In this document: positions 14,507-54,387 of the stretch, one piece after another | Position numbering within the stretch: position 1 is the stretch's first letter | Layout: every line of letters starts with the position of its first letter | From: Gammaproteobacteria bacterium | GTDB taxonomy: Bacteria > Pseudomonadota > Gammaproteobacteria > UBA5861 | Length of the DNA stretch: 64,000 bases | Assembly (NCBI GenBank): GCA_022360445.1 | Contig: JAKSCV010000036.1 | Span: forward strand, 62,001 to 126,000 | Reading direction: 5' to 3' | Made by a program: the position numbers and the translations under genes | The notes under the pieces: generated by a model | Seen by the model: the letters and a program-made list of their open reading frames with translations, nothing else | What the model was told of the DNA's origin: nothing | Database searches by the model: none

Positions 14507-15301
14507 TCAGGCATAAATGCTTTCGATCATCGTTCGTATGGTTTGCGGCTCAAAAGGCTTATCGCACAGTGCCGAGACGCCTGCTTGTTGTATCGCTTTG
14601 AGTCGTCCTTGATCTTTTTCACTGGTAATCATGAGTATGGGTAGTGACGACTGATTACTTTTGTTACGGATAAAGTTAACCAGTGCCTGGCCGTCAATAT
14701 TCGGCATGTTGTAGTCGGTTACAAGCAGGTCATAAAAGTTTGTTTTGATCATCTCTATCGCTTGCTGTCCATCCTTGGCTTCATGAATGTTGGTAATGCC
14801 CATATTCGTTAAAATGCGCTTAATTTGCTTGCGTGACATGGTACTGTCATCAACCACTAGTAGCTCCAGTTCCCGGGTATCAAATGTGTCGGAGTCGACA
14901 GGTGTTGGAATGAAATAATCGACAGAGGCTTTTAGGGCGTAAGATAATGCTTCAATTGTAAATGGTTTCGGCAGAATACTGATGGCCCCCCCCTGTTTGA
15001 TCGGTTCAAGGGCTTTGATGGATGTTTCACTTGAAATTAGAATGAACGCAGTCTTATCAAAAGAGGGCTCAGTATTAATGCGAGCAAGTAAGTCAGTGCC
15101 TAACATATCGGGTAGGTACATCGCACTGATCATGAGGTTTGGCTGTAGCGAGCGTAACATGCCAAGAGCCTCATCCCCGGTTTCAGTATCATGGATTTCA
15201 ACGGCGCCCATCGCCATAATTTGCTCTTTTATGATGCGCCGTTGTGTCACTGAGGGCTCAACCAATAAGATTGATAAGCTGGCTATATCGCTGGTAGACA
15301 T
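14507..15301 (-). CDS. Double-receiver response regulator, N-terminal receiver degenerate
   Basis: 264 residues from ATG 15301; upstream in-frame sequence overlaps the neighbouring gene and is rejected. Two CheY-like receiver domains in tandem: residues about 9-130 and 146-264, no output domain. The second has all key residues (acidic pair Asp151/Asp152 in LVVDDS, Asp196 in VTDYNMP, TS at 226-227, Lys248 in CDKPF). In the first, the phosphorylation site is Ala60 (ISAMYLP) and the acidic pair is Glu-Pro, while Lys112 remains. Receiver 1 is therefore probably a non-phosphorylated interaction module. It is a close paralogue of the gene just upstream. Confidence 0.9.
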   Translation of the reverse strand: MSTSDIASLSILLVEPSVTQRRIIKEQIMAMGAVEIHDTETGDEALGMLRSLQPNLMISAMYLPDMLGTDLLARINTEPSFDKTAFILISSETSIKALEPIKQGGAISILPKPFTIEALSYALKASVDYFIPTPVDSDTFDTRELELLVVDDSTMSRKQIKRILTNMGITNIHEAKDGQQAIEMIKTNFYDLLVTDYNMPNIDGQALVNFIRNKSNQSSLPILMITSEKDQGRLKAIQQAGVSALCDKPFEPQTIRTMIESIYA

Positions 15302-15338
15302 TTTACGGTTCCATGGAGGATGCAGATAGGATTCATGA

Positions 15339-16124
15339 CTATGAGAGCACTTCTTCAAGCAGCGTGCGAACGGTATTGGGGTCAAACGGTTTGTCGCAGA
15401 TTGCTGATACACCGGACTGCATAACCGCACTGAGTCGGCTTTCGCTTTCTTCGCTGGTGACCATAATGATGGGAATGGTTTGTTGGCCGCTATTTTCACG
15501 AATGTAGGCCGTGAGCTTTTCCCCATCCATTTCCGGCATATTGTAATCAGTTACCACAAGGTCGAAATAGTGTTCGGACAGGTATCGTGCGGCTTCCACG
15601 CCATTAGTCGCTTCAGTTAATCTGTCGACACCCATACTGCGTAGAACGCGCATCATATGATTGCGAGCCATTGTGCTGTCATCCACAACCAGTACATTTA
15701 AATCATCGACACAGTAGCTTGATAACGAGAGGGACTGCTTGCGGTGAAAGTTGACAGTGGCCGTTAGCGCGTATTTTAACTCGTTGAGTTCAAAAGGCTT
15801 GGGCAGAATGGCAACGCATCCAGCTTGCCTTATACCATCAAGCAGGTGCCAGTTACGTTCACCAGAGATTAAAATAAAAGGCGTTGCTTGTGTTTCAGTG
15901 TCAAGACGGATCTCATGCAGCAGCTCGGTGCCTGTCATATCTGACAAATACATATTGCTAATAACAAGATCGGGTGAGCCTTGCCGTATCGCCAGTAAGG
16001 CCTCTTGCCCTGATTGTGCATAGGTCACATACTGAACCCCCAGTTCCATCAAGCGAGCCTTGATGATGCGTTGTTGGGTCAGTGAAGCTTCAACCAGCAG
16101 GACGCGCATTTGAGAGAAATCCAT
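15339..16124 (-). CDS. Double-receiver response regulator, N-terminal receiver degenerate (paralogue)
   Basis: 261 residues from ATG 16124, with GAAGG seven bases upstream; ATG 16130 is also possible. The build is that of the downstream gene: receiver 1 (about 6-125) has Asn57 at the phosphoacceptor (VISNMYLSDM) and Glu-Ala instead of the acidic pair; receiver 2 (about 142-261) is intact with Asp148/Asp149, Asp193 (VTDYNMPEMDG), the TS pair and Lys245. No DNA-binding or enzymatic output is present, so signalling should be through protein contact, as for CheY. The two genes are 37 bp apart and look like a duplication. No histidine kinase or chemotaxis gene adjoins them. Confidence 0.9.
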   Translation of the reverse strand: MDFSQMRVLLVEASLTQQRIIKARLMELGVQYVTYAQSGQEALLAIRQGSPDLVISNMYLSDMTGTELLHEIRLDTETQATPFILISGERNWHLLDGIRQAGCVAILPKPFELNELKYALTATVNFHRKQSLSLSSYCVDDLNVLVVDDSTMARNHMMRVLRSMGVDRLTEATNGVEAARYLSEHYFDLVVTDYNMPEMDGEKLTAYIRENSGQQTIPIIMVTSEESESRLSAVMQSGVSAICDKPFDPNTVRTLLEEVLS

Positions 16125-16315
16125 AGCCATACCTTCAACACCTGATACCTGCACTAGCGGCCAATCTCTCTTTTTCTTAATATGCCACGCCACCGATCCA
16201 CCTATAAATGCTCAGAAATCGCATATACTTTGAGCCGGTCAAGAGTGGTTTTGATTCAAAGATTAAGGGGTCAGGCGTATCGTCAGGCCTCCCGTTAAGG
16301 ACGATTGGAAACCTA

Positions 16316-50655: not shown

Positions 50656-51147
50656 CTAGAAAACAACGTTATCCCATTCATCGCCGCTCAACATTCGGTT
50701 CAAGTCCACCAGAATCAATAAGTGTTCGTCCCGGCTGACGACGCCATGAATATAACGGGCACTCTCTTCGTTACCGATGCTGGGTGCGGTATCGATTTCG
50801 TTAGGATTAACGTCTACTACTTCGGCGACGGCATCAACCATGATGCCAATTGTGTGCTCACTGGATTCGATGATAATAATTCGTGTGCTGTCTGTGAGGT
50901 CGGCTGGTATCAGCCCGAAACGTTGTCGGGTGTCCACAACACTGACAACATTACCACGCAGGTTGATGATGCCAATCACATAGCTCGGTGCGCCGGGCAC
51001 TGGAGCAATGTCACTCACCCTCAACACTTCCTGCACTCCCATTACGTCAATGCCATAGGTTTCCTGGTCTAAGACAAAAGTCACCCACTGGCTGACGTCA
51101 TGACTCGAGGTTTCGTCGGGATGCAATACTTCAGCGATATCCGTCAT
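50656..51147 (-). CDS. cheW: Chemotaxis coupling protein CheW
   Basis: 163 residues, the usual size. Core marks: QWVTFVLDQETYGIDVMGVQ, VLRVSDIAPVPGAPSYVIGI, NLRGNVVSVVDTRQRFGL and HTIGIMVDAVAEVVDV. CheW links chemoreceptors to the kinase CheA. It is the second of two CheW-fold genes here. The kinase gene itself is not in the window. Confidence 0.94.
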   Translation of the reverse strand: MTDIAEVLHPDETSSHDVSQWVTFVLDQETYGIDVMGVQEVLRVSDIAPVPGAPSYVIGIINLRGNVVSVVDTRQRFGLIPADLTDSTRIIIIESSEHTIGIMVDAVAEVVDVNPNEIDTAPSIGNEESARYIHGVVSRDEHLLILVDLNRMLSGDEWDNVVF

Positions 51148-51257
51148 TTATTTAAGCTCCAAAAATTCGTTCAACGTTTAGCCGAAAGTGCAAAAGAAAC
51201 AGCACTTTTTAGGCCAACCCTACGCTTTTGTCGGCAAAAACATGTCGTTCTGTACCC

Positions 51258-51935
51258 CTACACGTTATTTTTTGCATATGCGGGTGACTCGGGCTTTCCA
51301 TACGCTGCGTGAATTTCTTCGGTATTGAGCACGAAGTGCAAGGAATCTTGTGTTAATCCAAGGCTCCAGCGCGTTTCGGAGGGTTTTTGCTTGTGCCAGC
51401 AAATCTGATCGTATTCCAACTTAACGACATCACTGATCGCGTGACTGCTCAGGCCCAGATTGGATTTGGCCAAGACCAGGACATATTTCGGCGTCATGCC
51501 GTCATTTTTTTGGCGAAAATCAATGGCGGCATCCGTATTTATGACTTTTATAAGGCGCTCTTGATGTCGCAAAATACCGAATGACCAAACCGGTTGATGG
51601 GGCAATCGAATCATTTTATTCAAGGGTGAAATGACTTTTTCCAGAGCCCGCAATGGGATGGCAAGACGAGAGTGCTTTGTTGAAAACAGAAGATAATCCG
51701 TTGGCGGGTATTGTGACACTAACGCGTCTTCTTGGGCTGCTAACCTAACGCTCGATGCCTCTATTTGGTTAGCGGGAGTCTCCCCCTGCAAGTCTTTGCC
51801 AGGAGGATGAAGAGGGAGAGAGTGCACTTCAGGAGGTGAAGTGACGTTTTCCAGCAGAAGATTGTTGAAGTATTGGTTGAGTAATGTCGCCGTTTTGGTT
51901 TTGAGTGCTTGCTTAGGTGGTGTGGGTATACTCAT
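51258..51935 (-). CDS. CheW-domain protein of the chemotaxis locus
   Basis: 225 residues. About 85 N-terminal residues are variable and partly Pro-rich; residues about 95-215 form a CheW-like domain (YLLFSTKHSRLAIPLRALEK, WSFGILRHQERLIKVINTDA, YVLVLAKSNLGLSSHAISDV). It occupies the place of the CheW-like gene between parA and cheW in Pseudomonas. Its exact role in receptor coupling or in ParA-dependent placement of arrays is not fixed. It starts 20 bp after the parA-like stop. Confidence 0.85.
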   Translation of the reverse strand: MSIPTPPKQALKTKTATLLNQYFNNLLLENVTSPPEVHSLPLHPPGKDLQGETPANQIEASSVRLAAQEDALVSQYPPTDYLLFSTKHSRLAIPLRALEKVISPLNKMIRLPHQPVWSFGILRHQERLIKVINTDAAIDFRQKNDGMTPKYVLVLAKSNLGLSSHAISDVVKLEYDQICWHKQKPSETRWSLGLTQDSLHFVLNTEEIHAAYGKPESPAYAKNNV

Positions 51936-51955
51936 GGACTCATGACGGAATGGCT

Positions 51956-52717
51956 TCAGGCCGCCAGGTCTTGAAGCAGCTGCTCATAAGCGAGCACACC
52001 TCGGGCGCGTGGGTGTAGGTATGACAGTGGTTTACCCAACTTGCTGGCGTCACGGAACTTAGTGTCTACTGGAATTTTTTCACGCCACACTTCATTCCCG
52101 TAACGCGCCCTTAGGGTATGTAAACTATCCACAGAGGCGCGTGTTCGTTGGTCATACATCGTGGGGACGATGCATTTCGATGGGACCGACTTTTGTGAGT
52201 GCTGAACCATATCCAGTGTGTGATACATGCGCTCCAGGCCTTTGAGCGCGAGAAACTCTGTTTGAACAGGGATTAACAGTTTTTCGCAGGCAGCAAGAGC
52301 GTTGATCATTAAAATACCCAGCACTGGGGTGCAGTCAAGCAAAATGAAGTCAAACCGATTTTCCAGCCGTCCCAGGGATTTTTTTAGCACCAGGCCCATG
52401 CCGGGGTGCGTACCGATTTCCTTATCTAAGGTGGCCAGCACGACTGAGGAGGGTAATAACCACAGGTTATCGCAAAGGGTTGGGTGGAGTGCGGAAATCA
52501 CATTTGAGGTGCTTGGGCCTGATGCGAATAAGTTATAAACACTGTCTTCAATGTCGTCGGGATTGTAGGAAAAGTAGCTGGTGAGCGAGCCCTGTGGGTC
52601 CAAGTCAACAAGCAGCGTTCGCTTTCCCTGTTGTGCCAGCATTCCCGCGAGCGTGACAGCGGTGGTTGTTTTTCCAACCCCGCCTTTTTGATTGGCAACC
52701 GTCCAGATATGCATCAT
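51956..52717 (-). CDS. ParA-family ATPase of the chemotaxis locus (ParC/Soj-like)
   Basis: 253 residues. Deviant Walker A at the N-terminus (ANQKGGVGKTTTAVTLA), Walker A-prime DLDPQGSLTSYFSY, and Walker B DFILLDCTPVLG. In Pseudomonas and Vibrio the chemotaxis-linked ParA homologue positions receptor arrays at the pole. Two possible starts, ATG 52717 and 52714, cannot be separated. It lies seven bases after the motD stop. Confidence 0.92.
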   Translation of the reverse strand: MMHIWTVANQKGGVGKTTTAVTLAGMLAQQGKRTLLVDLDPQGSLTSYFSYNPDDIEDSVYNLFASGPSTSNVISALHPTLCDNLWLLPSSVVLATLDKEIGTHPGMGLVLKKSLGRLENRFDFILLDCTPVLGILMINALAACEKLLIPVQTEFLALKGLERMYHTLDMVQHSQKSVPSKCIVPTMYDQRTRASVDSLHTLRARYGNEVWREKIPVDTKFRDASKLGKPLSYLHPRARGVLAYEQLLQDLAA

Positions 52718-52724
52718 ACGTCGA

Positions 52725-53489
52725 TTAGGGTTTGGGTACTTCTAAGGAGGTTTCAGCCAGATTGGCGTCAATGACAATTAGAACCCGGCGGTTTCTATGT
52801 CGGCCTTCGGGTGTGGCGTTGTCATCCACCGGTCGGAATTCGCCATAGCCAACGGCAGCCATGCGTTCAGGGGCAATGCCGTTGCGCGCGAAAAACCGGA
52901 CCACGCTGGCCGCTCGGGCAGAGGATAACTCCCAGTTACTGGGAAACTTGCTGGTTAAAATCGGGGTATTATCGGTAAACCCTTCAACATGAATACGGTT
53001 GCTAAGTGTGGACAATACATCTGCGACTCGGGTTAGCAGTGTTCTGGATTTTTCTGATAAATCAGCCTGCCCCACCTGGAACAACACCTGACTTTCAATT
53101 TCGATTTCGACACGATTGGGTTGTCGGCGTAGACGAACCGACTTTCTTTCATCGAGTTGGCTCAATGTGTTTTGCAGGCTCCTTGTTAGCTGGTTAAGGA
53201 CAGCCAACTCTTCTTGCGTATGCGCCTCAGCATTTTGTTTTGGTTCTGTTACTAACACTCTTTCCAGAAGGCTCTGGTGCGATGCCTGGGTTTTTGTGGT
53301 TGGTTTGAAGGCTTGGCTCAAGGCTTCAGAAATCACTTGATATTTCTCTCCGTCGAGTGAGGAAACGGAATACATGACAATAAAAAAACCCAGCAAAAGT
53401 GTAATAAAATCGGCGTAAGACACCATCCAGCGATCGTTGTTGTCCTCCTGGCGGTGGAGGTAACGTGTCAGCAAGTTATCCGGCTTCAT
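52725..53489 (-). CDS. motD: Flagellar stator protein MotD (MotB family)
   Basis: 254 residues from ATG 53489. The single transmembrane helix contains Asp27 (WMVSYADFITLLLGFFIVMY), the proton-binding residue of MotB-type stators. The C-terminal OmpA/MotB domain (about 125-245: HVEGFTDNTPI, SNWELSSARAASVVRFF, HRNRRVLIVI) anchors to peptidoglycan. It overlaps motC by 14 bp. In Pseudomonas this is MotD, the second stator set, required for swarming. Confidence 0.93.
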   Translation of the reverse strand: MKPDNLLTRYLHRQEDNNDRWMVSYADFITLLLGFFIVMYSVSSLDGEKYQVISEALSQAFKPTTKTQASHQSLLERVLVTEPKQNAEAHTQEELAVLNQLTRSLQNTLSQLDERKSVRLRRQPNRVEIEIESQVLFQVGQADLSEKSRTLLTRVADVLSTLSNRIHVEGFTDNTPILTSKFPSNWELSSARAASVVRFFARNGIAPERMAAVGYGEFRPVDDNATPEGRHRNRRVLIVIDANLAETSLEVPKP

Positions 53490-54240
53490 TGAAGAAACTC
53501 CGTAGCTTATTTTCCAGAACGCGAATATTCGCGCCTTCGGCGATACCGACAATGCCTTCAAGGACCATAGCTTGCTCAAGCACTCTGTTTTCAATAGTGC
53601 CTTTCAGCTTGTTCGCAACAGGCAGAAAGACCAGGTTGGCAAAGGCCACGCCGTAAACGGTGGCGACAAAAGCGGTTGCAATGCCATCACCCAATTTAGC
53701 GGGCTCGGTCAGGTTGTTCATGACGTGGATTAAGCCCATCACTGCACCGATAATGCCAATCGTGGGGCTATACCCTCCCATGCCTTCGAAGACCTTGGCC
53801 GCCTGCATTTCCTTGTATTCTTTGGCGCTGATTTCAACTTCCAGGATTTGTCGTATTTCGAGGGCCTTGTGGCCGTCTGCCAGTAGCATCATGCCTTTAC
53901 GAGTGAAGAGGTCGCCCTCGCGGCTGGCAAGCCTTTCCAGCGCGAGTGGGCCATCTTTGCGGGCAATTTCTGCCCATTCCAGTACTTTGTCGATGTGTTC
54001 GTCGTGGTCAAAGCGGGGGGAACGTACGACCCATGTCAACATTTCCATCGCACGCTTAAAAATGCTGGGTGGTGTTTGCAGCATCACGGCGCCCACCGTG
54101 CCGCCTACGACCACAAGAAATGCTGTACCTTGGATTAAAGCACCTAACTGGCCGCCTTCCAGCATGTTTCCGCCGGCTAATGCGGCAAAAGCGATGAGAA
54201 AACCGGTAATACTGAGCGCATCAAAACGACCCGATTTCAT
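53476..54240 (-). CDS. motC: Flagellar stator protein MotC (MotA family)
   Basis: 254 residues from ATG 54240, with AGGGAAG nine bases upstream. Four membrane spans (about 6-24, 33-52, 148-168, 178-202), the cytoplasmic loop with RSPRFDHDEHIDKVLEWAE and a conserved Pro-Gly pair near YSPTIGIIGAVMGLI. Together with MotD it forms the torque-generating stator. Upstream, where Pseudomonas has cheB, this gene is preceded by yheS, so the cluster is separated from cheYZAB. Confidence 0.93.
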   Translation of the reverse strand: MKSGRFDALSITGFLIAFAALAGGNMLEGGQLGALIQGTAFLVVVGGTVGAVMLQTPPSIFKRAMEMLTWVVRSPRFDHDEHIDKVLEWAEIARKDGPLALERLASREGDLFTRKGMMLLADGHKALEIRQILEVEISAKEYKEMQAAKVFEGMGGYSPTIGIIGAVMGLIHVMNNLTEPAKLGDGIATAFVATVYGVAFANLVFLPVANKLKGTIENRVLEQAMVLEGIVGIAEGANIRVLENKLRSFFNEAG

Positions 54241-54387
54241 GCGTTTAAACTTCCCTAAAATGTGATTGACGTGATCCTGACGGGCAGCGGCCCTTGCAGA
54301 AGTGATAAACAAGAAGCAGGCCAACTTTGATCAGTTGCACCTGTTGGGAAGCGATTTAGAAGGAGCTGAGGTGAAAGAAACGTTAAT

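What the first reader, a model, noticed from the sequence alone, without database searches (positions are those of the whole stretch)
14507..16124. Tandem double-receiver regulators with inactive first receivers
Both proteins have two receiver domains and no output. In each, the second receiver is complete while the first lacks the phosphorylated Asp (Ala60 in one, Asn57 in the other) and the acidic pair (Glu-Pro, Glu-Ala), yet keeps the Lys. Parallel loss with different replacements in adjacent paralogues suggests selection for a pseudo-receiver that works as a scaffold or dimerisation module. No kinase is adjacent, so the partners are unknown.
Basis: partly seen in the sequence, partly recalled or inferred. 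Interest (0 to 1): 0.6.

Follow-up and report, generated by a model that had tools for sequence, protein, structure and literature searches.

The report
CheY-derived double receivers, first half dead
Two neighbouring bacterial signalling proteins each join two copies of a chemotaxis switch, the first copy having lost its phosphate site long ago yet kept under strong selection, and the same kind of protein occurs across many swimming marine and methane-eating bacteria.

Summary
Genes A (14507-15301, -) and B (15339-16124, -) are 44% identical paralogues, each two receiver domains and nothing else. Receiver 1 has Ala (A) or Asn (B) for the phospho-Asp and Glu-Pro or Glu-Ala for the acidic pair; receiver 2 is intact.

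Parallel loss in adjacent paralogues is not supported. The two belong to a discrete stand-alone family in 60 of 369 sampled genomes of the class. In 141 merged rows receiver 1 never has Asp there (Ala 97, Ser 34, Thr 5, Asn 3, Cys 1, Arg 1), so the loss is most simply ancestral. Receiver 1 is constrained, not decaying (dN/dS 0.07-0.10; 23 columns at least 95% conserved, several around the former active site). Both receivers match the organism's chemotaxis CheY best: a CheY duplication. CheY's motor-facing positions are changed in both halves.

Holders nearly always have CheA (58 of 60) and FliM (56 of 60), also among large free-living genomes, but the gene is not beside cheA. Best reading: a phospho-switched adaptor or phosphate sink in chemosensory signalling, receiver 1 being a phosphorylation-blind binding or dimerisation half. 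Kinase, partner and output are inferred.

The parts
14507..15301 (-). Gene A: stand-alone tandem receiver protein, 264 aa (P0001 is this protein without its first Met)
   Evidence: ATG at 15299-15301; the longer mechanical ORF of 339 aa starts inside gene B and is not taken as the start.
14912..15283 (-). Gene A receiver 1, pseudo-receiver: Glu-Pro for the acidic pair, Ala60 at the phosphorylation site, Ser and Lys kept
   Evidence: receiver fold in the model; domain limits approximate
14513..14869 (-). Gene A receiver 2, complete receiver (Asp-Asp, Asp, Thr, Lys), CheY-like core with Asn at D+2 and Glu at T+2
   Evidence: domain limits approximate
15122..15124 (-). Codon of Ala60, at the position of the phospho-Asp of receiver 1 in gene A
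15302..15338 (-). Gap of 37 bases between genes B and A, same strand: likely one transcript (inferred)
15339..16124 (-). Gene B: paralogous tandem receiver protein (start at 16124, or at 16130 two codons earlier)
   Evidence: 44% identical to A over 258 aa
15744..16115 (-). Gene B receiver 1, pseudo-receiver: Glu-Ala for the acidic pair, Asn57 at the phosphorylation site, Ser and Lys kept
   Evidence: domain limits approximate
15345..15701 (-). Gene B receiver 2, complete receiver (Asp-Asp, Asp, Thr, Lys)
   Evidence: domain limits approximate
15954..15956 (-). Codon of Asn57, at the position of the phospho-Asp of receiver 1 in gene B

Best explanation
Genes A and B are members of a family made by duplication of chemotaxis CheY within one protein. 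The second copy stayed a working receiver; the first lost its phospho-Asp and one of its two metal-binding acids in the common ancestor and was then kept for another task. Most likely, a kinase of the CheA type (inferred) phosphorylates receiver 2, which changes how receiver 2 sits against receiver 1 (inferred from PleD, where a receiver and a pseudo-receiver do this in the opposite order). Receiver 1 cannot be switched itself and serves as a fixed binding or dimerisation half. With no output domain and with CheY's motor-facing residues replaced, the protein would not drive the flagellar switch but act as an adaptor or phosphate sink that tunes a chemosensory pathway, as the dual CheY protein FrzZ does in Myxococcus. 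Shown by sequence: architecture, ancestral loss, constraint on receiver 1, CheY origin, association with CheA and FliM. Inferred: the kinase, the domain rearrangement, the partner and the effect on the cell.
For: Discrete family, 60 of 369 class genomes at E <= 1e-45, weakest 8.6e-79. In the phylum sample family hits end at 3.6e-68 and the next hits start at 4.4e-33, nearly all over the receiver-2 part alone and in single-receiver proteins; the 15 taken from loci L214-L228 are 66-80% identical to the own CheY. Best match of receiver 1 in 15 of 15 and of receiver 2 in 15 of 15 tested members, among 38 other receivers of the own genome, is that CheY, encoded 1.8 kb from a CheA match on contig C97. 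No Asp in receiver 1 in 141 of 141 rows; receiver 2 has DD, D, T/S, K in 141 of 141, Asn59 in 138 and Glu89 (CheY numbers) in 132. dN/dS receiver 1 / receiver 2: A 0.10/0.14, B 0.07/0.06. CheA: 58 of 60 holders versus 178 of 309 others; FliM: 56 of 60 versus 134 of 309; among 238 genomes of at least 2.3 Mb with TonB receptors, strong CheA 57 of 59 versus 110 of 179, FliM 56 of 59 versus 113 of 179. The family gene of G363, which has neither CheA nor FliM, carries two in-frame stops. PleD and FrzZ precedents: PMC12632262 (section 19), PMC4546325 (passages).
Against: The gene is not near cheA in the genomes with long contigs looked at (G123, G133, G242, G249, G347) and has no conserved neighbour across lineages. 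G344 has the family and FliM but no CheA match; G035, G186 and G303 have CheA but no FliM. The co-occurrence is not corrected for descent, and holders also all have TonB receptors (60 of 60 against 249 of 309), so lifestyle contributes. Within FliM-positive genomes the extra link with CheA is weak (55 of 56 against 119 of 134, p 0.04). The model's domain arrangement is unsure (pTM 0.51 and 0.61). No test of phosphorylation, binding or phenotype exists here.
Confidence: 0.42

Rival explanations
1. Ligand-sensing pseudo-receiver: receiver 1 binds a small molecule (c-di-GMP or other) at its rebuilt pocket or its alpha4-beta5-alpha5 face and gates receiver 2, as the pseudo-receiver of ShkA gates its kinase.
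For: The most conserved columns of receiver 1 include E12, P13, S14, Q17, S56, S87, S88, E89, K109, P110 (CheY numbers), around the former active site, and R/K99-Q100 in helix 4 in 141 of 141 rows. ShkA precedent: PMC7010744 passages.
Against: The ShkA DDR linker motif is absent (a loose D-x-R pattern in 24 of 141 linkers), and the beta5 stretch of receiver 1 is Ile-Leu-Pro-Lys with no Tyr. That ShkA Tyr338 lies at the matching position was not verified. No ligand tested.
Confidence: 0.2
2. Partner of a non-chemotaxis kinase (for example a hybrid kinase or a type IV pilus Chp-type CheA), with co-occurrence with flagella only reflecting motile, free-living hosts.
For: No gene linkage to the flagellar che operon; four of 60 holders lack FliM; the own genome has three CheA-type matches; in some Alteromonadales the gene lies near a receiver-SpoIIE phosphatase gene and a STAS gene.
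Against: Association with CheA and FliM stays in size-limited, TonB-positive genomes; both receivers are closer to flagellar CheY than to the other 37 receivers of the own genome that were compared.
Confidence: 0.25
3. One reading: two adjacent paralogues lost the active site of receiver 1 in parallel.
For: Different residues, Ala and Asn; Pro and Ala. Genes A and B are not sisters in the trees as found.
Against: 0 of 141 rows have Asp at the site; the loss covers the whole family. A local duplication of A and B is not rejected either (p-AU 0.39).
Confidence: 0.03
4. Receiver 1 is a decaying leftover without a function.
For: Loss of catalytic residues; receiver 1 is somewhat more variable than receiver 2 (mean majority fraction 0.57 against 0.65).
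Against: Purifying selection on receiver 1 about as strong as on receiver 2; 23 columns at least 95% conserved; kept across many taxonomic families.
Confidence: 0.02

Closest known systems
Chemotaxis response regulator CheY
   Same: Nearest relative of both receivers by best match and tree; receiver 2 keeps D12, D13, D57, N59, T/S87, E89, K109
   Different: Two domains, the first without D57 and D13; F14, W58, K91, R/K92, Y106, V/I107, V/I108 and K119 mostly replaced in both receivers. That several of these make the FliM-binding face is recalled, not from a call.
FrzZ of Myxococcus xanthus (dual CheY output of the Frz chemosensory pathway)
   Same: Stand-alone protein of two CheY-like receivers; FrzZ amplifies Frz signalling (PMC4546325, passages)
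   Different: FrzZ has phosphorylation sites in both receivers (D52 and D220, PMC4546325 passage); here receiver 1 is dead and the gene is an orphan. FrzZ was not aligned here.
PleD (receiver, pseudo-receiver, GGDEF)
   Same: Receiver and pseudo-receiver in tandem; best two-domain Foldseek hit of the model (E 2.2e-14)
   Different: Opposite order (PMC12632262 section 19), GGDEF output, and a different relative arrangement (rmsd about 12 A over both domains)
ShkA hybrid kinase (kinase, pseudo-receiver, receiver)
   Same: Pseudo-receiver first, second receiver after it
   Different: ShkA has a kinase core and a DDR linker motif; neither is present here
Bacterial pseudo-receivers as a class (PMC12632262)
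   Same: Receiver 1 lacks the phospho-Asp and DD2 and keeps an acid at DD1, in line with the residue pattern that review reports
   Different: Here the pseudo-receiver is tied to an active CheY copy as the only other domain, and this holds in every member seen

Membership tests
Receiver domain, Pfam PF00072 | Match above Pfam's cut-off | tested here: met
   Two stretches in each protein; all four domains over the cut-off one by one
Pseudo-receiver (receiver 1) | Recognised as a receiver but lacking key phosphotransfer residues | tested here: met
   Ala60/Glu-Pro and Asn57/Glu-Ala in the window; none of 141 rows has Asp at the site
CheY (chemotaxis) | Single receiver domain | tested here: not met
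   Two receivers in every near-complete member
CheY (chemotaxis) | Score over the NCBIfam cut-off for CheY (NF007901, 189 bits) | tested here: not met
   136.3 and 131.8 bits
CheY (chemotaxis) | Aromatic residue at K-3 (Tyr106) and the motor-facing residues | tested here: not met
   Receiver 2: Ile 75, Leu 48, Met 10, Val 6, Phe 2 of 141; receiver 1: no aromatic in 141
CheY (chemotaxis) | Phosphorylation by CheA and binding to FliM | not testable with these tools
   Needs protein
FrzZ-type dual CheY | Two receivers, both phosphorylatable | tested here: not met
   Receiver 1 lacks the Asp
FrzZ-type dual CheY | Homology to FrzZ and a place in a Frz-type gene cluster | not tested
   FrzZ sequence was not fetched; neighbourhoods show no kinase cluster
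PleD | GGDEF output domain after the receivers | tested here: not met
   Only PF00072, and for B an overlapping AmiR_N match under its cut-off
ShkA-type gating by c-di-GMP | DDR motif in the linker | tested here: not met
   Loose D-x-R in 24 of 141 linkers, not conserved
ShkA-type gating by c-di-GMP | c-di-GMP binding by the pseudo-receiver | not testable with these tools
   Needs protein

The most novel reading that the evidence does not exclude
A widespread, undescribed accessory component of gammaproteobacterial chemosensory signalling: a CheY duplicated within one protein, whose dead first copy was rebuilt around the old active site into a lock, sensor or partner-binding half, and whose live second copy has been rewired away from the flagellar motor, so that CheA phosphate is diverted to a second, non-motor task.
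Probability: 0.3. Interest if true: 0.65.

Novelty: new variant of a known kind. Interest (0 to 1): 0.42.

Why it matters
How bacterial pseudo-receivers are switched is called a mystery in the 2025 review read here (PMC12632262, abstract). This family is a clean natural test case: a dead and a live copy of the best understood receiver, CheY, in one small protein with nothing else attached, present in cultivated Shewanella, Pseudoalteromonas and methanotrophs. If it takes phosphate from CheA, models of the chemotaxis pathway in these bacteria lack a component.

Tried and rejected
Parallel loss in adjacent paralogues: rejected as an explanation of the missing Asp, since no relative has it. Whether A and B arose by a local duplication stays open: not sisters in two trees, but a joint clade is not rejected (p-AU 0.39).

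Neighbours differ by lineage: peptidase and DJ-1 genes in Methylophaga and others, HU and a membrane protein in Shewanella, a SUI1 gene in Colwellia and others, receiver-SpoIIE and STAS genes in some Alteromonadales; no kinase kept. Broken or partial copies (L074, L088, L090, L092, and L014) fell below the score limit; L086 (partial) was but left out of the later counts, as was the fragment L147.

Fused output domains: three long open frames (L118, L089, L059) hold no further domain over its cut-off. ShkA-type DDR linker motif: not conserved. Domain arrangement from AlphaFold2: pTM 0.51 and 0.61, too low to use; Foldseek two-domain hits have rmsd near 12 A. A paper search for REC-REC gave mostly noise; one for tandem receiver with CheY and Shewanella gave none.

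Co-occurrence control: TonB receptors are in 60 of 60 holders and 249 of 309 others, so part of the association is lifestyle; the restricted comparison is. The genome lists were copied by hand; the set sizes agree with the tallies of those calls (60, 236, 190); the 238 large TonB-positive genomes are my own selection.

Full report
What is there. On the minus strand, gene B (15339-16124) and, 37 bases downstream, gene A (14507-15301) each encode about 264 residues that are two receiver domains and nothing else. They are 44% identical over 258 residues without a gap. In both first receivers the phosphorylated Asp is missing (Ala60 in A, Asn57 in B) and the acidic pair is Glu-Pro or Glu-Ala; Ser and Lys are kept. 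The second receivers are complete. The nearest kinase-like gene in the window is some 27 kb away and has its own regulator.

A family, and an ancestral loss. A scan of named genomes with protein A gave 77 loci, largely Shewanella, Colwellia and relatives, Pseudoalteromonas, Alteromonas relatives, Methylophaga and methanotrophs. Of 80 non-redundant sequences (window proteins included) none has Asp at the receiver-1 site: Ala 59, Ser 17, Asn 2, Thr 1, Cys 1; receiver 2 is intact in all 80. Because that scan was seeded by one protein, I repeated the search with a 30-row profile over 369 genomes drawn evenly from the class: 60 hold the family at E <= 1e-45, the weakest at 8.6e-79. Of 70 sequences recovered, one a fragment of a broken gene, none has Asp: Ala 43, Ser 19, Thr 4, Asn 2, Arg 1, one not readable. 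Merged, with two fragments dropped, it is 0 of 141 rows (A and B are in twice): Ala 97, Ser 34, Thr 5, Asn 3, Cys 1, Arg 1; DD1 is Glu in 141, DD2 Pro in 138 and Ala in 3, the Ala rows being gene B (twice) and its copy in the sibling genome. The simplest history is one loss before the family spread. Ala against Asn in A and B is later variation at a site that takes mostly Ala or Ser, not parallel loss.

Not a relic. Against the sibling species (L017, Halothiobacillaceae bacterium UBA5861), dN/dS is 0.10 (receiver 1) and 0.14 (receiver 2) in A, 0.07 and 0.06 in B. In receiver 1, 23 columns are at least 95% conserved, 28 in receiver 2; receiver 1 is somewhat more variable overall (mean majority fraction 0.57 against 0.65). 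The conserved columns of receiver 1 include E12, P13, S14, Q17, S56, S87, S88, E89, K109 and P110 in CheY numbers, that is, the surroundings of the former active site, and R or K at 99 followed by Q100 in all 141 rows. So the emptied pocket itself is kept in a fixed new form.

Origin. Compared with 38 other receivers of the own genome (43 matches less the four of A and B and one partial), the best match of receiver 1 is the same protein in 15 of 15 members tested, and so for receiver 2 (a sixteenth member named in the script was missing). That protein is taken as the flagellar CheY: it lies 1.8 kb from a CheA match and on one contig with FliM. In a tree of these domains the receiver 1 sequences form one group (100/97) on a long stem, beside the receiver 2 sequences, next to this CheY; one odd own-genome receiver with a very long branch (L195) falls among them, and the weaker forks are unsure. 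In 299 genomes of the phylum, 15 hold family members (14 of the same class, one partial match from another class, G559), ending at E 3.6e-68; the next hits start at 4.4e-33, cover nearly always the receiver-2 part alone and lie mostly in short, single-receiver frames. The 15 of these taken from L214-L228 are 66-80% identical to the own CheY. A CheY duplication inside one protein, with the first half disabled, fits this best.

Changed surfaces. In CheY numbers and against 16 CheY sequences, receiver 2 keeps D12, D13, D57, N59 (138 of 141), T/S87, E89 (132 of 141) and K109. F14, W58, K91, R/K92, Y106, V/I107, V/I108 and K119 are mostly replaced in both receivers; receiver 2 has Cys (131) and Asp (140) at 107-108 where CheY has aliphatic residues. 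That part of these positions forms CheY's FliM-binding face is recalled knowledge. The review PMC12632262 (section 7) gives 86% Tyr or Phe at K-3 in true receivers; here receiver 2 has Phe in 2 of 141 rows. So receiver 2 looks able to take phosphate but unlikely to act on the motor as CheY does.

Company. In the 369 genomes, CheA (PF02895) is in 58 of 60 holders and 178 of 309 others (odds ratio 21); FliM in 56 of 60 and 134 of 309 (odds ratio 18). As a control for lifestyle, TonB receptors are in 60 of 60 and 249 of 309, so holders are more often free-living; limiting the comparison to 238 TonB-positive genomes of at least 2.3 Mb still gives CheA at E < 1e-10 in 57 of 59 against 110 of 179 and FliM in 56 of 59 against 113 of 179. 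Holders without FliM: G035, G186, G303, G363; without CheA: G344, G363; weak CheA: G094. In G363, which lacks both, the family gene carries two in-frame stops. None of this is corrected for descent, and within FliM-positive genomes the link with CheA is weak (p 0.04). The gene does not sit with cheA in the genomes with long contigs looked at and has no lasting neighbour.

Structure. AlphaFold2 models of B (30 sequences, pLDDT 85.8, pTM 0.51) and A (63 sequences, pLDDT 85.6, pTM 0.61) show two receiver folds with a poorly defined linker; the arrangement of the two domains is not reliable. Foldseek finds PleD and the tandem-receiver part of a GGDEF protein (3luf, 3mf4) as two-domain hits, at rmsd near 12 A, and single receivers such as CheY at about 1.1 A.

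Mechanism. I commit to a phospho-switched adaptor: receiver 2 takes phosphate, most likely from a CheA; this alters its contact with receiver 1, which is a fixed, phosphorylation-blind partner- or dimer-binding half; the protein tunes a chemosensory pathway as adaptor or sink rather than driving the motor. PleD shows that phosphorylation of a receiver can act through its contact with a pseudo-receiver (PMC12632262 section 19), and FrzZ shows that a dual CheY can amplify chemosensory signalling, with sites D52 and D220 in its two receivers (PMC4546325, passages). Only the anatomy, constraint, origin and co-occurrence are shown here.

Known or new. Not a CheY by NCBIfam's cut-off (136 and 132 against 189 bits), not FrzZ-like in having both sites, not PleD or ShkA by domains or linker motif. 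No description of this family turned up in searches, which cover open-licence PubMed Central papers only. What I read: PMC12632262 outline, abstract and sections 4, 7, 19, 20; passages of PMC5907407, PMC3441718, PMC4546325 and PMC7010744; the rest only as search listings. I file it as a new variant of a known kind: a dual CheY with a pseudo-receiver.

Noticed in passing
window 50656-54324 (-): A cheW gene, a second CheW-like gene, a ParA-type gene and motC/motD-like genes look like the tail of a flagellar chemotaxis operon, about 35 kb from the tandem receivers; own CheY, a CheA match and FliM lie on another contig (C97). Names read from the sequences by eye, not tested by a family search.
   Followed up: partly
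G363 contig C13:44135-44896 (locus L147; contig of the same length as that of L074): The family gene is broken by two in-frame stops in a 1.7 Mb genome that has no CheA and no FliM match.
   Followed up: partly
L045, L049, L051, L052, L054, L057, L063, L064, L067, L068, L070, L082, L090, L093: In these 14 Alteromonadales loci (of 77 named loci) a small SUI1-domain (YciH-type) translation factor gene lies just upstream of the tandem receiver gene in the same direction.
   Followed up: partly
L070, L071, L073, L052, L093 (also L103, L204, L205): A receiver-SpoIIE phosphatase gene and a STAS gene, resembling HsbR/HsbA-type anti-sigma control (recalled names), lie divergently near the tandem receiver gene in some Alteromonadales.
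   Followed up: partly
L042:4740-6807 and L121 (G065): Two adjacent copies of the family also occur in a Methylococcales bin and in G065, so neighbouring pairs have arisen or been kept more than once.
   Followed up: partly
G559 contig C200:5428-5967 (locus L213): A single partial family match (E 3.6e-68) in a genome of another class of the phylum, 80% complete; gene transfer or contamination not settled.
   Followed up: no
receiver 2, CheY positions 107-108: A Cys-Asp pair before the conserved Lys is nearly invariant (Cys 131 and Asp 140 of 141 rows) where CheY has aliphatic residues; its meaning is unknown.
   Followed up: no
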